DNA of 64,000 nt from contig OZ024823.1 in the NCBI GenBank assembly GCA_964016985.1, positions 136,110,112-136,174,111 of the forward strand, given 5' to 3'. The first letter of the stretch is position 1. Every line of letters starts with the position of its first letter. Shown piece by piece: positions 199 to 63,291 of the stretch. The notes beneath the pieces are model-generated. The model was not told where the DNA came from. It saw only the letters and a program-made list of their open reading frames with translations, and did not search any database. Position numbers and translations under genes: made by a program. Source of the stretch: Anodontia alba (lineage: Eukaryota; Mollusca; Bivalvia; Lucinida; Lucinidae).

Positions 199-264
199 GC
201 AAATAGTGCAGACCCTGATCAGACGCCGCATTTGCGGCGTCTGATCTGGGTCGACACTGTTTGC
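199..264. repeat. Family A short hairpin
   Basis: An almost perfect palindrome runs from GCAAATAGTGCAGACC to its reverse complement ending in CTGTTTGC. The stem contains GATCAGACGCCGC and the loop is TTT. The same core recurs in the window both alone and inside the TTAA-ended families B and I. Confidence 0.8.
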
Positions 265-1897: not shown

Positions 1898-2125
1898 TAC
1901 CTTTATTACTCTTGGGACAAATTCAGCAGACGTCGATTTCACAATATTTTCTTTTTTTTTTACTTGAGAATAGAACTTTACATGCCATGCAAATTTTGTC
2001 AAGGAGACAATTTGCATGAAATGTAAATTCCAAGTTTCTGGAAAAAAAAAAAAAAAAACAGAAAAAAACATATGTCATAATGTCGTCTGCGGAAATTTGT
2101 ACCCAGCATGCTAAGCATTGAACGC
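1898..2125. mobile_element. Family G MITE (copy 1)
   Basis: Ends are related to TTAACGCTTAGCATGCTGGG and TTACCACTCT.. with inner CAGCAGACG motifs. The central inverted repeat is GACAATTTGCATGAAATG. The copy is diverged and has gained poly-A/T tracts. Short open frames across it are products of the repeat. Confidence 0.75.
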
Positions 2126-2234
2126 CCAACACTTAAGACTGGAATTGTACCAAATGCCAGTTTTGTCAACAAACAGATTAATTCTTTCCTCCGAAGAAAA
2201 CCAGATTCATCCATACATCAGAAAATGACCTGTA

Positions 2235-2398
2235 TCGTAAACACGGAAATCGACGTCCCAGATCAGCCTGCGCAGTTACACAGTCCGGTCAGGGCCTTGA
2301 CTGCCCGCTTACACTGTGTAATATGTTGAAGATCATGATAAGACTGTGCAGCTACGCAGCCTGACCTGGGCCTTCGCTGTACGTATACAACATTAAAG
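2235..2398. repeat. Degenerate F-like hairpins
   Basis: CCAGATCAGCCTGCGCAG is followed by CAGTCCGGTCAGGGCC, and a second similar pair follows, ending GCCTTCGCTGTACGT. It resembles a decayed double-hairpin F copy. Confidence 0.45.
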
Positions 2399-2522
2399 GC
2401 TCCTTTTATCTGAATAAATGTCGTGATAAGAATAAACAAAATTTACGACCCTATTATTTTTAAGGTTGTTGCGTTGAGCAAATTTGCTTTATCTGTTTAA
2501 ACATATAGTATGGTTAGAGACT

Positions 2523-2725
2523 TTAAACGCTGAGCATGCTGGGTTAAATTTTCAGCAGACGACATATTGAAATCTTTTTTACCGTTTTTCCAGAAAACAG
2601 GGTTTGACATTTCATGCAAATTGTCTCCATTGTTTTTTTGTTTTGTTTTTTTTTTTTGGACAAATAAGAAAACATATAATCAGTTTGTCGTCTGCTGAAT
2701 TAGCCCACAGAGTGTTAAAGATTAA
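2523..2725. mobile_element. Family G MITE (copy 2)
   Basis: Left end TTAAACGCTGAGCATGCTGG then CAGCAGACGACATATTG; right end CGTCTGCTGAATTAGCCC..GTTAAAGATTAA. The middle holds ACATTTCATGCAAATTGTC but lacks the matching second arm. Confidence 0.75.
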
Positions 2726-3465: not shown

Positions 3466-3695
3466 TTAACCCATTGTAGACCGAATGAACTCACCCTACT
3501 ATATACTGGAAGATTCTATTTTCGATTTTAGGTAGGGCAGGTTATGTGATTTAGTTATTCTGAGAGAAAAATGATTTAACTATTTGCAAACAGTGAAGAC
3601 CCTGATCAGACGCCGCATTCTGCGGCGTCTGATCTGGGTATGCACTGTTTGCCAATTACACTATTACACTCTTACGGGTCTCCCGACTGGGTTAA
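3466..3695 (+). mobile_element. Family I MITE, TTAA-ended (copy 1)
   Basis: A 230 bp element with ends TTAACCCATTGTAGACCG and ..GACTGGGTTAA, carrying a nearly perfect A hairpin (GATCAGACGCCGC) near the right side. Copy 2 at 59206-59434 matches throughout, including the internal TTCGATTTTAG tract. Confidence 0.8.
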
Positions 3696-6881: not shown

Positions 6882-7030
6882 TGTCTTTCCGAAAACGTAG
6901 AATAAGTACGCTAATTTCATCAAATCGAATCCCCTTCAGAAATTATCCTAGATCCGACCTTGACATTGGCTGTTGTAGAGTCGGTGTACGTCAGTGTACC
7001 ATTTCAAAGCCGTAAGTGTAGTAACCAAGT

Positions 7031-7135
7031 AAGCATTCTTTATAAATCTATAGCGGGCCGTTATCGGCCCGTCAGGGTAGCTGACGGGCCGATAACGGCC
7101 CACTATAGATTTATAAAGAATGCTAGCTGGGAATG
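7031..7135. mobile_element. Family D fold-back (copy 1)
   Basis: Near-perfect palindrome at 7031-7124: AGCATTCTTTATAAATC.. and its complement, then GCTGGG at the right edge. Each arm holds CGGGCCGTTAT followed by CGGCCCGTCAG, two 11 bp modules that are themselves partly palindromic. Related copies lie at 54377 and 56709. Confidence 0.85.
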
Positions 7136-11487: not shown

Positions 11488-11551
11488 TACACAGAATGAT
11501 GACACAGCTTAGCTTGTATAACCGTACACAGTCTGGTAATCGGCTAACACA

Positions 11552-11620
11552 TACTGTCACAACAACCTCGTTTCGAGGTCGTCTCGACGACGTCGAAACG
11601 ATGTTGTTGTTACGTTGAAT
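11552..11620. repeat. Family E-like 11-mer fold-back (copy 4)
   Basis: Four consecutive 11 bp modules start at 11565, 11576, 11587 and 11598 (ACCTCGTTTCG, AGGTCGTCTCG, ACGACGTCGAA, ACGATGTTGTT). They form a hairpin with AACAAC/GTTGTTG ends. Confidence 0.65.
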
Positions 11621-17495: not shown

Positions 17496-17774
17496 CATTA
17501 TGAAAACACGCCTATTCAAATATATAGAAAATATTACCTCCAAAAACTGAAAATTCTCAGATAAAAAAGTCTGATATTTTTCATATTTCTGCTCAAAACA
17601 TAGATTGTGGGTACTCGTTAGAACCGCCTCGGCGAGGCGGTTCTAACGAGTACCCACAATCTATGTTTTTGAGCAGAAATAAGAAAAATATTGTATACCC
17701 CTGTAAACCCCAGTTTTACTATATAAAAGTGGGGTTTAAGGGGGTCAAAATTATATAGGCATGTTTTCGTGATG
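17496..17774 (-). mobile_element. Family H MITE (copy 6)
   Basis: Reverse orientation, full length, with a perfect core TTAGAACCGCCTCGGCGAGG and onward and ends CATTATGAAAACACGCC / CGTGATG. Confidence 0.92.
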
Positions 17775-17879: not shown

Positions 17880-18590
17880 CGCTGTCAAATTATCCAAACC
17901 GACCAGTGGCCGATGGTCTTGAAAGCAGCTCAGGCAATTGCGGTGCGACAGTCGACCTAATTTCTGACCGACTTTAGCTGTTTTCTCGTCGGCCGATCTT
18001 TTTTTTTTTTTTTTTTCTTATTAGTTTCAAATTATCATTTTGTCTTTGGTCGGTCGATGATTTCGGGAATTTGGGGATCGGAACAGCGTCGGGTGACTGT
18101 CTGCCGATTGTCGACCGACAATCTATTCGACTTCACATGCGTCTATGGCACTCCAAATCTGTTGACAGACGGCCGGACATCGGGCGATAAACAAGCGACA
18201 GTCACCAGACTGGTCGGCCGATACTTTTGGTTGACCGATCGTCGGCTGATAGTCACCTGACTGTGAGGCTCCGGATGGTGCATCAGCAGCATGAAATGCT
18301 GCTTCTCGCCCTTACGCGAAAGAAAACATCATCTGGTCAATCGACAGTTGCGGGCATGTCGCCCGATCGTCGCCTGATTCATGCTTGTTTCCCGACAAAA
18401 ACAAAAAGTCTGTCGCAGATCGGCCGCTGATCGTGCAACGGTCGGCTTAATTTAAGGCGTTGATGCCGCCAAAGGCTATCGGCGAGGTAGATTTTTAATG
18501 TGAAAACTCCAGTCGGCTGATCAAAAGGTTTTTATTGACCGATCAACATTAAAATATCGTGTTGGCCGACCATCAGTTTTGTTTTAATGC
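17880..18590. repeat. CpG-rich island of 11 bp phased CGGCCGAT-like modules
   Basis: GC- and CpG-richer than its surroundings and dense in variants of GTCGACCGAC, TCGGCCGAT and GACCGATC. Consecutive 11-mers are visible: GTCGGGTGACT at 18088, GTCTGCCGATT at 18099, GTCGACCGACA at 18110; and GGTTGACCGAT at 18229, CGTCGGCTGAT at 18240, AGTCACCTGAC at 18251. Both strand orientations occur, so much of it can fold. Short open frames here are not convincing genes. Confidence 0.65.
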
Positions 18591-31843: not shown

Positions 31844-31951
31844 CCCAGCGGGCACATGACGTCTATACAACGTCGCCTCAACGTCGATGCAACGTCATAA
31901 CGTTGCATCGACGTTGAGGCGACGTTGTATAGGCGTCATGTGTCTGCTGGG
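31844..31951. mobile_element. Family E fold-back (copy 1), 11 bp phased
   Basis: Nearly perfect 108 bp palindrome bounded by CCCAGCGGGCACATGAC and GTCATGTGTCTGCTGGG. The left arm has CAACGTC at 31868, 31879 and 31890, exactly 11 bp apart; the right arm repeats this on the other strand. The outer CCCAGC/GCTGGG is shared with family D. Confidence 0.9.
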
Positions 31952-38097: not shown

Positions 38098-38367
38098 CAT
38101 CACGGAAACATGTCTATATAATTTTGACCCTCTTAAACCCCACTTTTATACAGTAAAACCGGGGTTTACAGGGGTATACATTATTTTTCTTATTTCTGCT
38201 CAAAAACATAGATTGTGGGTACTCGTTAGAACCGCCTCGCTGAGGCGGTTCTAACGAGTACCCACAATCTATGTTTTGAGCAGTCATATCAAAAGTTTTT
38301 ATCTGAAAATTTTCCGTTTTTGGTTGTAAAATTTTCAATATATTTGAATAGGCGTGTTTGCGTAATG
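38098..38367 (+). mobile_element. Family H MITE (copy 15)
   Basis: b-arm left, palindrome at about 38209-38277, right a-arm with a small internal deletion after GAGCAG. Ends CATCACG/CGTAATG. Confidence 0.9.
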
Positions 38368-38867: not shown

Positions 38868-38955
38868 CAGATGCCTACAACGTTGAAATAATGTTGTTTC
38901 GAAGTTGGGACTTTGAATCAATGTTGCAACGACGTTATTCTAACGTTGTTTACCC
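38868..38955. repeat. Family E-like 11 bp phased repeat (copy 3)
   Basis: Modules ACGTTGAAATA, ATGTTGTTTCG and AAGTTGGGACT, then ATGTTGCAACG, ACGTTATTCTA and ACGTTG, are spaced 11 bp apart with one break. Confidence 0.65.
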
Positions 38956-39467
38956 GCTTCGAAGGTGTTTTGTTTTATTTCAACCGCTTAATCCATAAGA
39001 GCTCTTTCTTTTCATACTGTAAAATGAATGCCAGGCCAGAATGATTGCACCAACAGACAGAAAGCCTGGTATATGAGACCAGAGTCTATGTACGAAAGTC
39101 AATAGAATATGTTTATGAATGAGCTGATGTGGTGGCAGCTTTCACAAAAGCACGACATGCTTCTCAGATCTATCAGATATCTGCGTTTGGTACTTACATA
39201 CGGTTGGTTGTTCCTAGCACCCCCTCACAATGAGTGACTTAATTAATTTTTAGAATACTACTTCTGAATGCAGTCATTAACACCTAACTTGTATCATTAT
39301 TTCAAATTAACAAACGGAAAACGGCTTGTCTGCAAGCTAAAGGCCATTTAAGTAATCCACTTTTTAAAAATTCAAAACTTGCTTTACAGTATATGTTCAT
39401 TAGCAGACATTTTTTACAAGGCGAAGCTGAGCTGAAGGTAAAACAAATATTTCTGGCAGTATGTATT
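38956..39467. other. Non-repeat stretch
   Basis: Nothing supported. Confidence 0.5.
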
Positions 39468-41020: not shown

Positions 41021-41234
41021 TTAACCCTTGTCATGCGGTATAAATTGAGATGCCACGCCCACTTCTAATTTTTAGCCAGTCATATTACTTGACCCAGGTT
41101 GTTGATAGAAATTCAAATACTGAATGGCAAACAGTGCAGATCCAGATCAGTTGGCTTCTTAAGAAGCCAACTGATCTGGATCTACACTGTTTGCAAAGGC
41201 AGAGCATATCTGGGTTCAGCAGGACTAGGGTTAA
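41021..41234 (-). mobile_element. Family B MITE (copy 2)
   Basis: Reverse orientation to copy 1. Ends TTAACCCTTGTCATGCGG and ..CAGCAGGACTAGGGTTAA; shared internal GCCACGCCCACTTCTAATTT. It has a perfect hairpin of AGATCCAGATCAGTTGGCTT and its complement. Confidence 0.82.
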
Positions 41235-44011: not shown

Positions 44012-45051
44012 ATGGCAGACCAACAAGTAAGGCGTCGTCTAAGTGAAGAAGAGATGAATAGGGGCATTGGAATGCTTGAGGCTGGGTTGTCACAGAGGGA
44101 GGTTGTTCGTGTTCTTGGGGTGTCCTAGAGCGTTGTCTCAAGAATGTGGACTCGATTCCATTTGACTGGAATCGTAATGCATCAGCACGCCGAGGTCGTG
44201 AACGCTCAACAACTCGAGCTCGACCGATTTATCGCTCTACAAGCCCGACGTCACCGGTTCAACAACGCAACAACGTTACGTAGCGAATTGCAGAACGCTA
44301 CCGGTGTTCGTTTAAGTACACATACCATTAGAAATCGGTTGCATGAAGCTGGCTTGAGGTCAAGACGACCTGCAATATGCATCCCATTGACACGACACCA
44401 TGTTCAGGAGCGTTTTGAATGGGCACGAGATCATGTTACGTGGGCCCTTAATGACTGGACCCCCATTCTTTTCACTGATGAGTCCAGGTTTTGTGTGGAC
44501 TTCACTGACAGGCGGGCTAGGGTCTGGAGGATGCGAAATGAACGTTTTGCTGAAGTTTGTATTGCAGAGCATGATCGCTATGGCGGGGTTTCAGTTATGG
44601 TGTGGGCGGGAATTAGCGCTCAGGGTAAAACGGACCTGCACGTCATCGATAAAGGCACACTGACGGCAGAGAGGTACGTCAATGAAATTTTGGATGTTCA
44701 TGTTCGCCCATATGCATATGTGCTATAGGTCCTGATTTCATTCTGATGGATGATAATGCCCGTGCACATAGGGCCCGCATCACCAACCGGTACCTTGAGC
44801 AAGCTGCAATTGTGCGATTGGATTGGCCAGCGAGATCTCCTGCTTTGAATCCCATAGAACATGCATGGGATAAGCTGCAGAAAGCCATTTCTTTTCGCCA
44901 GGTCCAACCAGCAACTGTCCGGGAGCTCAGAGAGGCTCTCATTGAGGAGTGGACCCAGCTTCTTCAGCATAAGCTCCGTAGACTAATCGGTAGCATGCGA
45001 CGGCGATGTCAGGTCGTAATCAATGCCCATGGGCATCATGCACGCTATTAA
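44012..45051 (+). pseudogene. Tc1-family DD34E transposase, inactivated
   Basis: Would cut and paste the surrounding element. Start ATG at 44012. An N-terminal helix-turn-helix region (GLSQREVVRVLGVS) is interrupted by an in-frame TAG at 44126. Frame continues, but about 44165-44222 reads out of frame; the shifted frame gives the GRERSTT linker expected between the two DNA-binding helices, so two small compensating indels are inferred. A second HTH follows (TLRSELQ..STHTIRNRLHEAGL). Catalytic acids: D in TDESRF (codon 44477), D in DDNARAH (44752) and E in NPIE (44857), with exactly 34 residues between the last two. A frameshift near 44713-44725 puts TAG at 44726 and moves the C-terminal third into another frame, which ends with TAA at 45049. 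At least one stop and one uncompensated frameshift remain, so the copy is non-functional. Confidence 0.93.
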
Positions 45052-46028: not shown

Positions 46029-46222
46029 GGTTAATGCCCAGTAAAAACACAGTGGCGCACAAGTGTCGTTCCGACGTCACAGCGACGTCAAGACGTCTCT
46101 TGGGCATTTTAACGGCGTTGCCTGTTTACTGGATGTACCCAGCGGACATACAACGTCTTCACAACGTCGCATCAACGCTAATACCACGTTGTATAATGTA
46201 TAAATGTCATATGCCCCCTAGG
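46029..46222. mobile_element. Family E fold-backs (copy 2, two adjoining)
   Basis: First part: CCCAGTAAAAACA..GCCTGTTTACTGG ends with 11-mers GTCGTTCCGAC, GTCACAGCGAC and GTCAAGACGTC inside. Second part from about 46138: CCCAGCGGACATA with CAACGTCTTCA, CAACGTCGCAT and CAACGCTAATA, again exactly 11 bp each, ending ..ACGTTGTATAATG. Confidence 0.7.
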
Positions 46223-48436: not shown

Positions 48437-50125
48437 GTAGGTACTTTGTCCCCTTAACTCCTCCAACAGTTTTTGTCCGATCCTTATGAAACTTTACAGG
48501 TGTTTTAAGGATGGTCTGAAGATGTGCATGAGGTTTTTTCAGAATCCTGAAATAATTTTTTATCACTTTTTCCGCATTTTTAACTTAGACATTTTTTTAG
48601 TTCTAATATTACAGAAGTCTATAGGGAGTAGGTACCTTGTCCCCTTAACTCCTCCCACAGTGTTTGGCCGATCCTTTTGAAACTTTACGTGGGCTTTTAG
48701 GATGGCCTGAAGATACGCATGTGGTTTTTTTTCAGAATCCTGAAATATTTTTTATTACTTTTTCCGCATTTTTAACTTAGACATTTTTTGAGTTCTAATA
48801 CTACAGAAGTGTATAGGGACCAGGTATCTTGTCCCCTTAACTCCTCCCACAGTTTTTGGCCGATTCTTTTTAAACTTTACAGGTGTTTTAAAGATGGTCT
48901 GAAGATGTGCATGTGGTTTTTTTCGGTTCCTGAAATTAATTTTTATTACTTTTTACACATTTTGAACTTAGACATTTTTTGAGTTCTAATATTACAGAAG
49001 TCTATAGGGAGTAGGTACCTTGTCCCCTTAACTCCTCCCATAGTGTTTGGCCGATCCTTTTGAAACTTTATATGCGCTTTCAGGATGGACGGAAAATATG
49101 CATGTGGTTTTTTTCAGAATCCTGAAATAATCTTTTATTACTTTTGCCGCATTTTTTACTTAGACATATTTTGAGTTCTAATACTACAGAAGTATATAGG
49201 GAGCAGGTACCTTGTCCCCTTAACTCTTCCCACAGTTTTGGCCGATCCTTTGAAACTTTACAGATGCTTTAAGGATGGTCTGAAGATATGCATGTGGTTG
49301 TTTTTCAGAATCCTGAAATAATTTTTTATCACTTTTTACACGTTTTTAACTTAGACATTTTTTGAGTTCTAATATTACAGAAGTCTATAGGGAGTAGGTA
49401 CCTTGTCCCCTTAACTCCTCCCACAGTTTTTGACCGATCCTTTTGAAACTTTACGTGGGCTTTTAGGATGGCCTGAAAATATGCAGATGGATTTTTCAGA
49501 ATCCTGAAATAATTTTTGATTACTTTTTCTGCATTTTTAACTTAGACATGTTTTGAGTTCTAATATTACAGAAGTGTATAGGGTGCAGGTACCTTGTCCC
49601 CTTAACTCCTCCCACAGTTTTTGTCCGATCCTTTTGAAACTTTACATGGGCTTTTAAGGATGGCCTGAAGATATGCATGTAGTTTTTTCAGAATCCTGAA
49701 GTAATTTTTGATTACTTTTTCCGCATTTTTAACTTAGACATTTTTTGAGTTCTAATATTACAGAAGTGTATAGGGTGCAGGTACCTTGTCCCTTTAACTC
49801 CTCCCACAGTTTTTGTCCGATCCTTTTGAAACTTTACAAGGGCTTTTAGGATGGCCTGAAGATATGCATGTGCTTTTTTAAGAATCCTGAAATAATTTTT
49901 TACCACTTTTTCCGCATTTTTAACTTAGACATTTTTTGAGTTCTAATACTACAGAAGCGTATAGGGAGTATGTACCTTGACCCCGTAACTCCTACCACAG
50001 TTTTAAGCCGATCCTTTGAAACTTTACAGGTGCTTTAAGGATGGTCTGAAGATATGCATGTGTTTTTTTTTTTCAGAATCTTGAAATTATTTTTTATCAC
50101 TGGTTTCCTGCTTTAATACTTAGGT
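48437..50125. repeat. 191-192 bp satellite array, nine units
   Basis: Unit anchors (GGTACC or variant) lie at 48440, 48631, 48823, 49014, 49206, 49397, 49588, 49780 and 49971, spacing 191 or 192. Each unit reads through CTTAACTCCTCCCACAG, CCGATCCTTTTGAAACTTTA, TTTTTCAGAATCCTGAAATA, CATTTTTAACTTAGACATTT and GAGTTCTAATATTACAGAAG. The last unit fades near 50125. Two unit types alternate at the start. No coding or RNA gene seen. Confidence 0.95.
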
Positions 50126-56232: not shown

Positions 56233-56708
56233 TATAACTTTGCGGAAAAAAATCGGATATACGGTACAATAGTAGTGCGCATGCTTCCGCATAAATGCAC
56301 TTAAAGCCGCGCCTTAAAACACAGTGGCTCTTCCGCGTTATGTGCAATGAATAAGAAGAATCTAATTTATTCTGCAGATCAACACAGTCTGACCAAGACC
56401 GGAGGTGAAAAGTTCCAACAGTTGTCAGTTATTCTACAAGTGGACAGGGAAAAAGCCAACCAAAGTCCCTTTTTAAGGGAGGCGAAGTTTTACAGAGTTA
56501 CACTCCATCGACCCCTATGAGTGTATCCATTAAAGTTTTCAGATTATCTTACACTTTCAGGAATGTTACACTGTGAATGTCTAATTGGAAATTATCATGA
56601 CTTTTGTTGTGCATCTTCTTTGTTTAGATTTTGTAATGAAATTGCCAAAACATAAGATACATAGAAAATGCAACAACAACGGGACACTGCCTTCCCAAGA
56701 CACCATAC
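56233..56708. other. Non-repeat stretch with C fragment
   Basis: A C-like right flank (CCCTTTTTAAGGGAGGCGAA) lies near 56470. Nothing else supported. Confidence 0.4.
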
Positions 56709-56778
56709 TCAGCTAGCATTCTTTATAAATCTACAGCGGGCCGCGCGCTGTAGATTTATGTAGAATGCTGACTGGGTA
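56709..56778. mobile_element. Family D fold-back (copy 3, short)
   Basis: CAGCTAGCATTCTTTATAAA..TCTACAGCGGGCCGCGCGCTGTAGA..GAATGCTGACTGGG; only one 11-mer remains at the tip. Confidence 0.85.
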
Positions 56779-63012: not shown

Positions 63013-63291
63013 CATCATGAAAACACGCCTATATAATTTTGACCCCCTTAAACCCCACTTTTATATAGTAAAACTGGGGTTTACAGGGGTATACATTATT
63101 TGTCTTATTTCTGCTCAAAAACATAGATTGTGGGTACTCGTTAGAACCGCCTCGACGAGGCGGTTCTAACGAGTACCCACAATCTATGTTTTGTGTAGAA
63201 ATATGAAAAATATCAGAATTTTCTATCAGAAAATTTTCATTTTTTGGTGGTAAAATTTTCAATATAGTCGAATAGGCGTGTTTTCGTAATG
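63013..63291 (+). mobile_element. Family H MITE (copy 24)
   Basis: b-arm left, full length, core GAACCGCCTCGACGAGGCGG, ends CATCATG/CGTAATG. Confidence 0.92.

What the first reader, a model, noticed from the sequence alone, without database searches (positions are those of the whole stretch)
31844..31951. Fold-backs built from modules phased at exactly 11 bp (families D, E and the 18 kb island)
In E copy 1, CAACGTC recurs at 31868, 31879 and 31890 and mirrors on the other arm. E copy 2 (46029-46222), E-like copies at 11565-11608 and 38868-38955, D copies at 7031 and 54377, and the island at 18088-18120 and 18229-18261 also break into consecutive 11-mers, although their sequences differ (AACGTC, GGGCCG, TCGACCG). 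D and E share outer CCCAGC/GCTGGG. One period with different sequences suggests a common way of making or selecting the modules, about one helical turn apart, such as phased protein sites or slippage in a cruciform. I do not know a described family with this rule.
Basis: seen in the sequence. Interest (0 to 1): 0.75.

Follow-up and report, generated by a model that had tools for sequence, protein, structure and literature searches.

The report
Hairpin transposon with 11-base modules
An animal genome carries tiny hairpin-shaped jumping DNA elements, and in one family the arms repeat a short motif every 11 bases; this looks like a small variant of the known foldback transposons rather than a new kind of thing.

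Summary
E1 (31844-31951) is a 108-bp palindrome with RACGTY cores at steps 11,11,11,8,11,11,11. Lag 11 is the best self-match in each E1 arm (p(max) 0.001 and 0.002) and is below p 0.05 in none of 16 hand-picked control hairpin arms. The other E copies look like relatives of E1, so they are not independent cases. D has two modules per arm: lag 11 is best in D1 and D2 but not significant (p(max) 0.10-0.39), and D3 has lost them. The 18-kb island has an 11-bp period but is barely a hairpin.

New here: D and E behave as non-autonomous DNA transposons with CCCAG(C/T) ends and 2-bp target duplications of mixed sequence (5 of 6 window copies; 80 of 94 usable D copies read through predicted proteins, shuffled 30.9±3.9).

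Best reading: miniature foldback elements whose cores are stacked, helically spaced protein sites; binding is inferred. Precedents: Galileo, Tm1, Tetris. The claim "one period, many sequences" rests on one strong family, one island and one weak family. The genome search that would decide it did not complete.

The parts
31844..31951 (.). E1: intact 108-bp fold-back element, CCCAGC...GCTGGG, flanked by AA/AA
   Evidence: 50 of 54 pairs complementary; single 52-bp stem on folding, z -22.7; flanks
31858..31896 (+). E1 left array: four RACGTY cores at 11-bp steps
31899..31937 (-). E1 right array: four cores at 11-bp steps (outermost GGCGTC, 5 of 6 bases), 8 bp from the left array
46037..46133 (.). 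E2a: 97-bp degraded E copy, CCCAGT...ACTGGA, flanked by TG/TG; 11 bp shorter than E1. Of 7 module positions expected from E1's geometry, 4 match the core at 5 or 6 of 6 bases, 2 at 4, and the outermost left one does not
   Evidence: (E 0.011)
46138..46222 (.). E2b: 85-bp degraded E copy, CCCAGC...CCTAGG, flanked by TA/TA; cores at 46152, 46163, 46174, 46185 and 46203
   Evidence: (E 1.1e-05); right end set by hand from the fold
38871..38958 (.). E-like degraded copy; cores at 38879, 38890, 38901 | 38909, 38920, 38931, 38942 (11,11,8,11,11,11; one further off-register match at 38928); ends unclear
   Evidence: (E 4.6e-05)
11545..11620 (.). E-like degraded hairpin with weak 11-bp period; ends unclear
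   Evidence: (E 0.0023)
7025..7131 (.). D1: 107-bp fold-back element, flanked by AA/AA
54377..54483 (.). D2: 107-bp fold-back element; two CGGSCCG modules 11 bp apart per arm; flanks TA/TT do not match
56708..56776 (.). D3: 69-bp D copy that has lost the centre with its modules; flanked by TA/TA
17880..18480 (.). 18-kb island: TCGGCCGA-type cores with an 11-bp period, no recognised ends, weak fold
   Evidence: limits chosen by me

Best explanation
E and D are miniature, non-coding fold-back DNA transposons of an animal genome, moved by the transposase of an unseen autonomous partner that recognises CCCAG(C/T) ends and makes a 2-bp target duplication of mixed sequence. Shown: ends, 2-bp duplication, abundance of D in predicted proteins. 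Inferred: the partner. In E the arms are arrays of a near-palindromic RACGTY core, one per 11 bp, about one helical turn. The cores are most likely stacked secondary binding sites for the transposase or an accessory protein, which make up for a short end signal (inferred from core-versus-spacer conservation and from Galileo). Modules are gained or lost as 11-bp units (one case, E1 versus E2a, fits). The 8-bp centre step is the fold point of two mirrored arrays. D is a sister family of the same end class that holds two modules per arm.
For: Single-arm lag-11 tests with 16 control arms; same core-and-centre geometry in E1 and, degraded, in the 38.9-kb copy and E2a; E1/E2a length difference of 11 bp and alignment score 60.0 against a shuffled maximum of 40.4; core columns vary less than spacers over 23 modules, p 5e-05; 2-bp duplication in 80 of 94 usable D proteins against 30.9±3.9 shuffled and in 5 of 6 D/E copies of the window, chance about 1e-05; Galileo precedent (passages).
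Against: No protein, partner or binding was seen. E1's left arm alone does not show core-specific conservation (p 0.37), and modules in E2a and the 38.9-kb copy were placed partly by their core. The reverse orientation of E2a aligns to E1 slightly better (60.2) with several gaps, so which module was lost is open; E2b differs by 23 bp, not a multiple of 11. E2a and the 38.9-kb copy also hold off-register core matches. D2 lacks a matching 2-bp flank; 14 of the 94 D proteins are incompatible. Steps of 11 bp drift slowly against a 10.5-bp turn and the 8-bp centre breaks the phase between arms.
Confidence: 0.55

Rival explanations
1. Frozen accident: an 11-mer was duplicated a few times in the arm of one ancestral element by slippage, and copies inherit the period; no protein reads it.
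For: The E copies are probably one family; E1's left arm alone shows no core-specific conservation, p 0.37; other hairpin families in the window have no lag-11 signal; the CCCAGC-ended element at 2102-2543 has none either (z -2.2).
Against: Core columns vary less than spacers over 23 modules although the cores hold CpG; the island shows the same step with another core.
Confidence: 0.33
2. The hairpin itself makes the modules: slippage or template switching in a cruciform adds and removes units and keeps the arms alike.
For: D2 has 3 changed pairs of 8 with compensating changes in both arms, D3 1 of 5; D3 lost its hairpin tip; 5 of the 120 listed D proteins hold a second D core 42-114 bp away.
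Against: At the one pair tested, no paired change was seen in the 120 listed proteins. It does not explain why 11: none of 16 control hairpin arms shows it. The repeated D spacings are not multiples of 11, though only frame-keeping ones are visible.
Confidence: 0.08
3. The step is set by double-stranded RNA: transcribed hairpins have one core per A-form turn (11 bp, recalled) for an RNA-binding protein or silencing enzyme.
For: E1 folds as RNA into one continuous 52-bp stem.
Against: No transcription was tested; the 8-bp centre breaks the phase; CpG palindromes are more usual for DNA-binding dimers (recalled).
Confidence: 0.03

Closest known systems
Tm1, Mutator/Foldback family of root-knot nematodes (PMC3169594; passages)
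   Same: Composite terminal inverted repeats with varying numbers of a short redundant motif (about 14 bp), including MITE-like members.
   Different: 9-bp target duplication, larger, several domains; here 2 bp, about 108 bp, 11-bp step.
Galileo of Drosophila, P superfamily (PMC3688188; abstract and passages)
   Same: Foldback-like arms with tandem repeats; several transposase (THAP) binding sites shown by footprint and gel shift, proposed to give specificity.
   Different: Arms up to 1.2 kb with long repeats; the paper's passages give no 11-bp step; binding was not tested here.
Tetris of Drosophila virilis (PMC4079207; abstract and passages)
   Same: Foldback, non-coding, variable number of tandem repeats in the arms, autonomous partner not found.
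   Different: About 220-bp repeats, 8-9 bp target duplication, long arms.
Angel and other short palindromic MITEs of fish (recalled; searches gave no paper on them)
   Same: Short, nearly perfect palindromic repeats in many copies.
   Different: Not compared in sequence; no 11-bp modules recalled.

Membership tests
MITE (non-autonomous DNA transposon) | Short, non-coding, terminal inverted repeats | tested here: met
   68-108 bp palindromes without coding role
MITE (non-autonomous DNA transposon) | Target-site duplication of fixed length | tested here: met
   2 bp: 80 of 94 usable D proteins of 120 listed; 5 of 6 D/E copies in the window
MITE (non-autonomous DNA transposon) | High copy number | tested here: inconclusive
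   D: 376 protein hits, 120 seen. E: translated search found no candidate
Foldback elements | Inverted repeats made of short tandem motifs, little middle sequence | tested here: met
   E1, arms meet with no loop; weak for D
Foldback elements | 8-10 bp target duplication (as in Tm1 and Tetris) | tested here: not met
   2 bp; works like a foldback, not filed as one of the Mutator-type family
Tc1/mariner | TA target (recalled) | tested here: not met
   Left flanks of the 94 D proteins are mixed: AA 18, TA 16, TT 15, AT 12 and others
PIF/Harbinger, canonical | 3-bp target duplication | tested here: inconclusive
   2-bp register far above chance; the 3-bp register is at chance (77 against 77.7), but that test has little power because of codon wobble. 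Relatives with 0 or 2 bp exist
CMC(T) elements | 2-5 bp target duplication | tested here: met
   2 bp; range from PMC12730594, passages
CMC(T) elements | CA..TG ends in most cases | tested here: not met
   CCCAG..CTGGG
CMC(T) elements | Transposase with C(2)C and H(3-4)H motifs | not tested
   No partner known

The most novel reading that the evidence does not exclude
Several transposon families with CCCAG ends in one genome have independently built arms of palindromic CpG cores at one core per 11 bp, because one transposase lineage assembles a filament on helically spaced sites and its DNA-binding part has changed core sequence while keeping the step.
Probability: 0.12. Interest if true: 0.7.

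Novelty: new variant of a known kind. Interest (0 to 1): 0.36.

Why it matters
If the cores are phased transposase sites, E would be a foldback small enough (about 100 bp) for module number and spacing to be tested one by one, which would put the idea that many weak sites give end specificity to a direct test. The 2-bp, mixed-sequence target duplication is a handle for finding the missing autonomous partner. If the period is a frozen accident, this is an ordinary MITE family.

Tried and rejected
More E or D copies by DNA pattern: genome contigs gave 0 twice; viral contigs with a D pattern gave 0. CAACGTY three times at 11 bp in viral contigs gave 9 loci. So the core does not by itself force 11 bp there, and I dropped that idea; against this, 11 is the commonest step for CAACGTY that is not a multiple of three (5 of 7, control 4 of 17), on small numbers. 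Island-type 11-mers three in a row: 3 viral loci; TCGGCCGA with free spacing: 1 locus; too few to use. Translated E1 as a protein query: no candidate. Rfam: no match at gathering scores. Whole-element autocorrelation was replaced by single-arm tests, because a palindrome doubles the signal. One search had a filter error and counted nothing; one search is the corrected run. Paper searches: I saw listings and abstract starts, and opened passages of five papers; two searches listed only part of their papers.

Full report
WHAT THE WINDOW IS. The window is 37.8% GC and has only two ORFs of 150 aa or more with a usual start, a transposase-like ORF split over two frames at 44129-45051 (relatives carry PF01498), many CA/TG microsatellites and 56 snap-back hairpins by my scan. 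I read it as animal DNA; the species was not identified.

THE OBSERVATION. E1 (31844-31951) is a 108-bp palindrome with 50 of 54 pairs complementary. RACGTY cores start every 11 bp in each arm, four per arm, and the two arrays meet at an 8-bp step. Because a palindrome shows every repeat twice, I tested single arms against 1000 dinucleotide shuffles, taking the maximum over lags 7-20. Lag 11 is best in both E1 arms (p(max) 0.001 and 0.002), in E2b (0.003), in the left arm of E2a (0.009) and in the right arm of the 38.9-kb copy (0.005). It is best but not significant in the left arms of the 38.9- and 11.5-kb copies, and not best in the right arms of E2a and of the 11.5-kb copy. Of 16 control arms that I picked from the other hairpins, none is below p 0.05 at lag 11 (lowest 0.068); one has lag 11 as its best lag without significance, and one, inside a tandem array, has a strong lag 14.

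HOW FAR IT REACHES. With E1 as query, nhmmer finds E2b (E 1.1e-05), the 38.9-kb copy (4.6e-05), the 11.5-kb copy (0.0023) and E2a (0.011) in the window; blastn finds only E2b. They are probably one family, though shared modules alone could raise such scores. D1 and D2 are one family with two modules per arm; lag 11 is best in all four arms but p(max) is 0.10-0.39, and D3 has lost the modules. The 18-kb island has lag 11 as its best lag with a TCGGCCGA-type core, but no recognised ends, and its fold is barely above chance. Over the whole window lag 11 is not more frequent than other lags. The claim of one period in unrelated modules thus rests on E, one island and, weakly, D.

ANATOMY OF E. In E1 the first core starts 14 bp from the left end and the last starts 19 bp before the right end, a mirror-symmetric layout. 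With these offsets, E2b's five expected positions match the core at 5 or 6 of 6 bases. Of E2a's seven, four match at 5 or 6, two at 4, and the outermost left one does not (I chose the number of modules per arm to fit). Off-register matches also occur: 46065 and 46111 in E2a, 46195 in E2b, 38928 in the 38.9-kb copy. Lengths are 108, 97 and 85 bp. E1 and E2a align with one 11-bp gap (score 60.0; shuffled maximum 40.4 of 200), but the reverse orientation scores 60.2 with several gaps. E2b aligns best reversed, with one 23-bp gap (93.6). Over 23 modules the core columns vary less than the spacers (permutation p 5e-05, the floor of the test), but modules are related, some were placed by their core, and E1's left arm alone is not significant (p 0.37).

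THEY ARE TRANSPOSONS. A translated D1 search found 376 predicted proteins at E<=1, of which 120 were listed and read; they hold the D element in open frame inside varied flanks. The residues before and after the element give the flanking dinucleotides as far as the genetic code allows. Of the 120, 26 were dropped (13 without the final W, 6 without the first P, 5 and 2 with residues that cannot carry the element's end base). Of the 94 left, 80 are compatible with a 2-bp duplication, against 30.9±3.9 when pairs are shuffled (maximum 48 in 5000). The 1-bp register is near chance (37 against 33.5±4.4). The 3-bp register is at chance (77 against 77.7±3.0), but that test has little power. Targets are mixed. 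In the window D1, D3, E1, E2a and E2b have matching 2-bp flanks; D2 and the CCCAGC-ended element at 2102-2543 do not. The right ends of E2a and E2b and the left end of D1 are degraded and were set by me. So D and E share an end class and a duplication length. This speaks against Tc1/mariner (TA only, recalled) and leaves the superfamily open: 2-bp duplications occur in CMC-type elements with CAC..GTG ends and in some Harbinger relatives.

ARMS CHANGE TOGETHER IN SOME COPIES. Against the D consensus that I inferred, D1 has two single-arm changes (partly by construction, since D1 helped to make it), D2 has 8 changed pairs, 3 of them compensating in both arms, and D3 has 1 of 5. At the one pair that I tested in the 120 listed proteins, no paired change was seen. 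Five of the 120 hold a second D core, 42-114 bp from the first.

MECHANISM. I favour stacked protein sites: near-palindromic cores, conserved while spacers vary, one helical turn apart, in the arms of a transposon. Galileo is the precedent: its THAP domain binds several sites in foldback-like arms, and its authors propose that many sites supply specificity (passages). Binding, the partner, and the reason for 11 rather than 10.5 bp are inference. The main rival is a frozen slippage product.

LIMITS. The genome search did not answer in 14 tries, so the decisive test, many genomic copies, was not done. Repbase and Dfam were not available, so E and D may already be named. My searches of open-access papers showed no 11-bp-modular foldback in their listings; most listed papers were not opened, so this is weak evidence of absence.

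Noticed in passing
window 1-64000, e.g. 17595-17669, 38203-38277, 63118-63192: A hairpin family around GGGTACTCGTTAGAACCGCCTC, with many copies among the 56 hairpins of the window; no 11-bp period in the two copies tested.
   Followed up: partly
window 199-264, 3582-3656, 41127-41194 and others: A second recurrent hairpin family, GCAAACAGTG.AGA(T/C)CC.GATCAG...; translated flanks give the recurrent words VDPDQT or VDPDE.
   Followed up: no
window 48439-50101: Tandem array of a 191-bp unit, 8.7 copies, also read as a 383-bp dimer.
   Followed up: no
window 2102-2543, 21821, 52189: Another CCCAG(C/T)ATGCTAAGC-ended element; the 442-bp copy at 2102-2543 has GCATGCTGGG at the other end, no matching 2-bp flank and no lag-11 signal.
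   Followed up: partly
P0121-P0240: The D transposon stays open in one reading frame and turns up in many predicted proteins of public assemblies (PASILYKSIAGRYRPVSYPDGPITARYRFIKNAYW), a source of false gene annotation.
   Followed up: partly
L124:8925, L125:14182, L126:1908: Viral contigs with at least three tandem 11-mers of the GTTGGCYGATN type; perhaps repeated sites or coding repeats, not examined.
   Followed up: no
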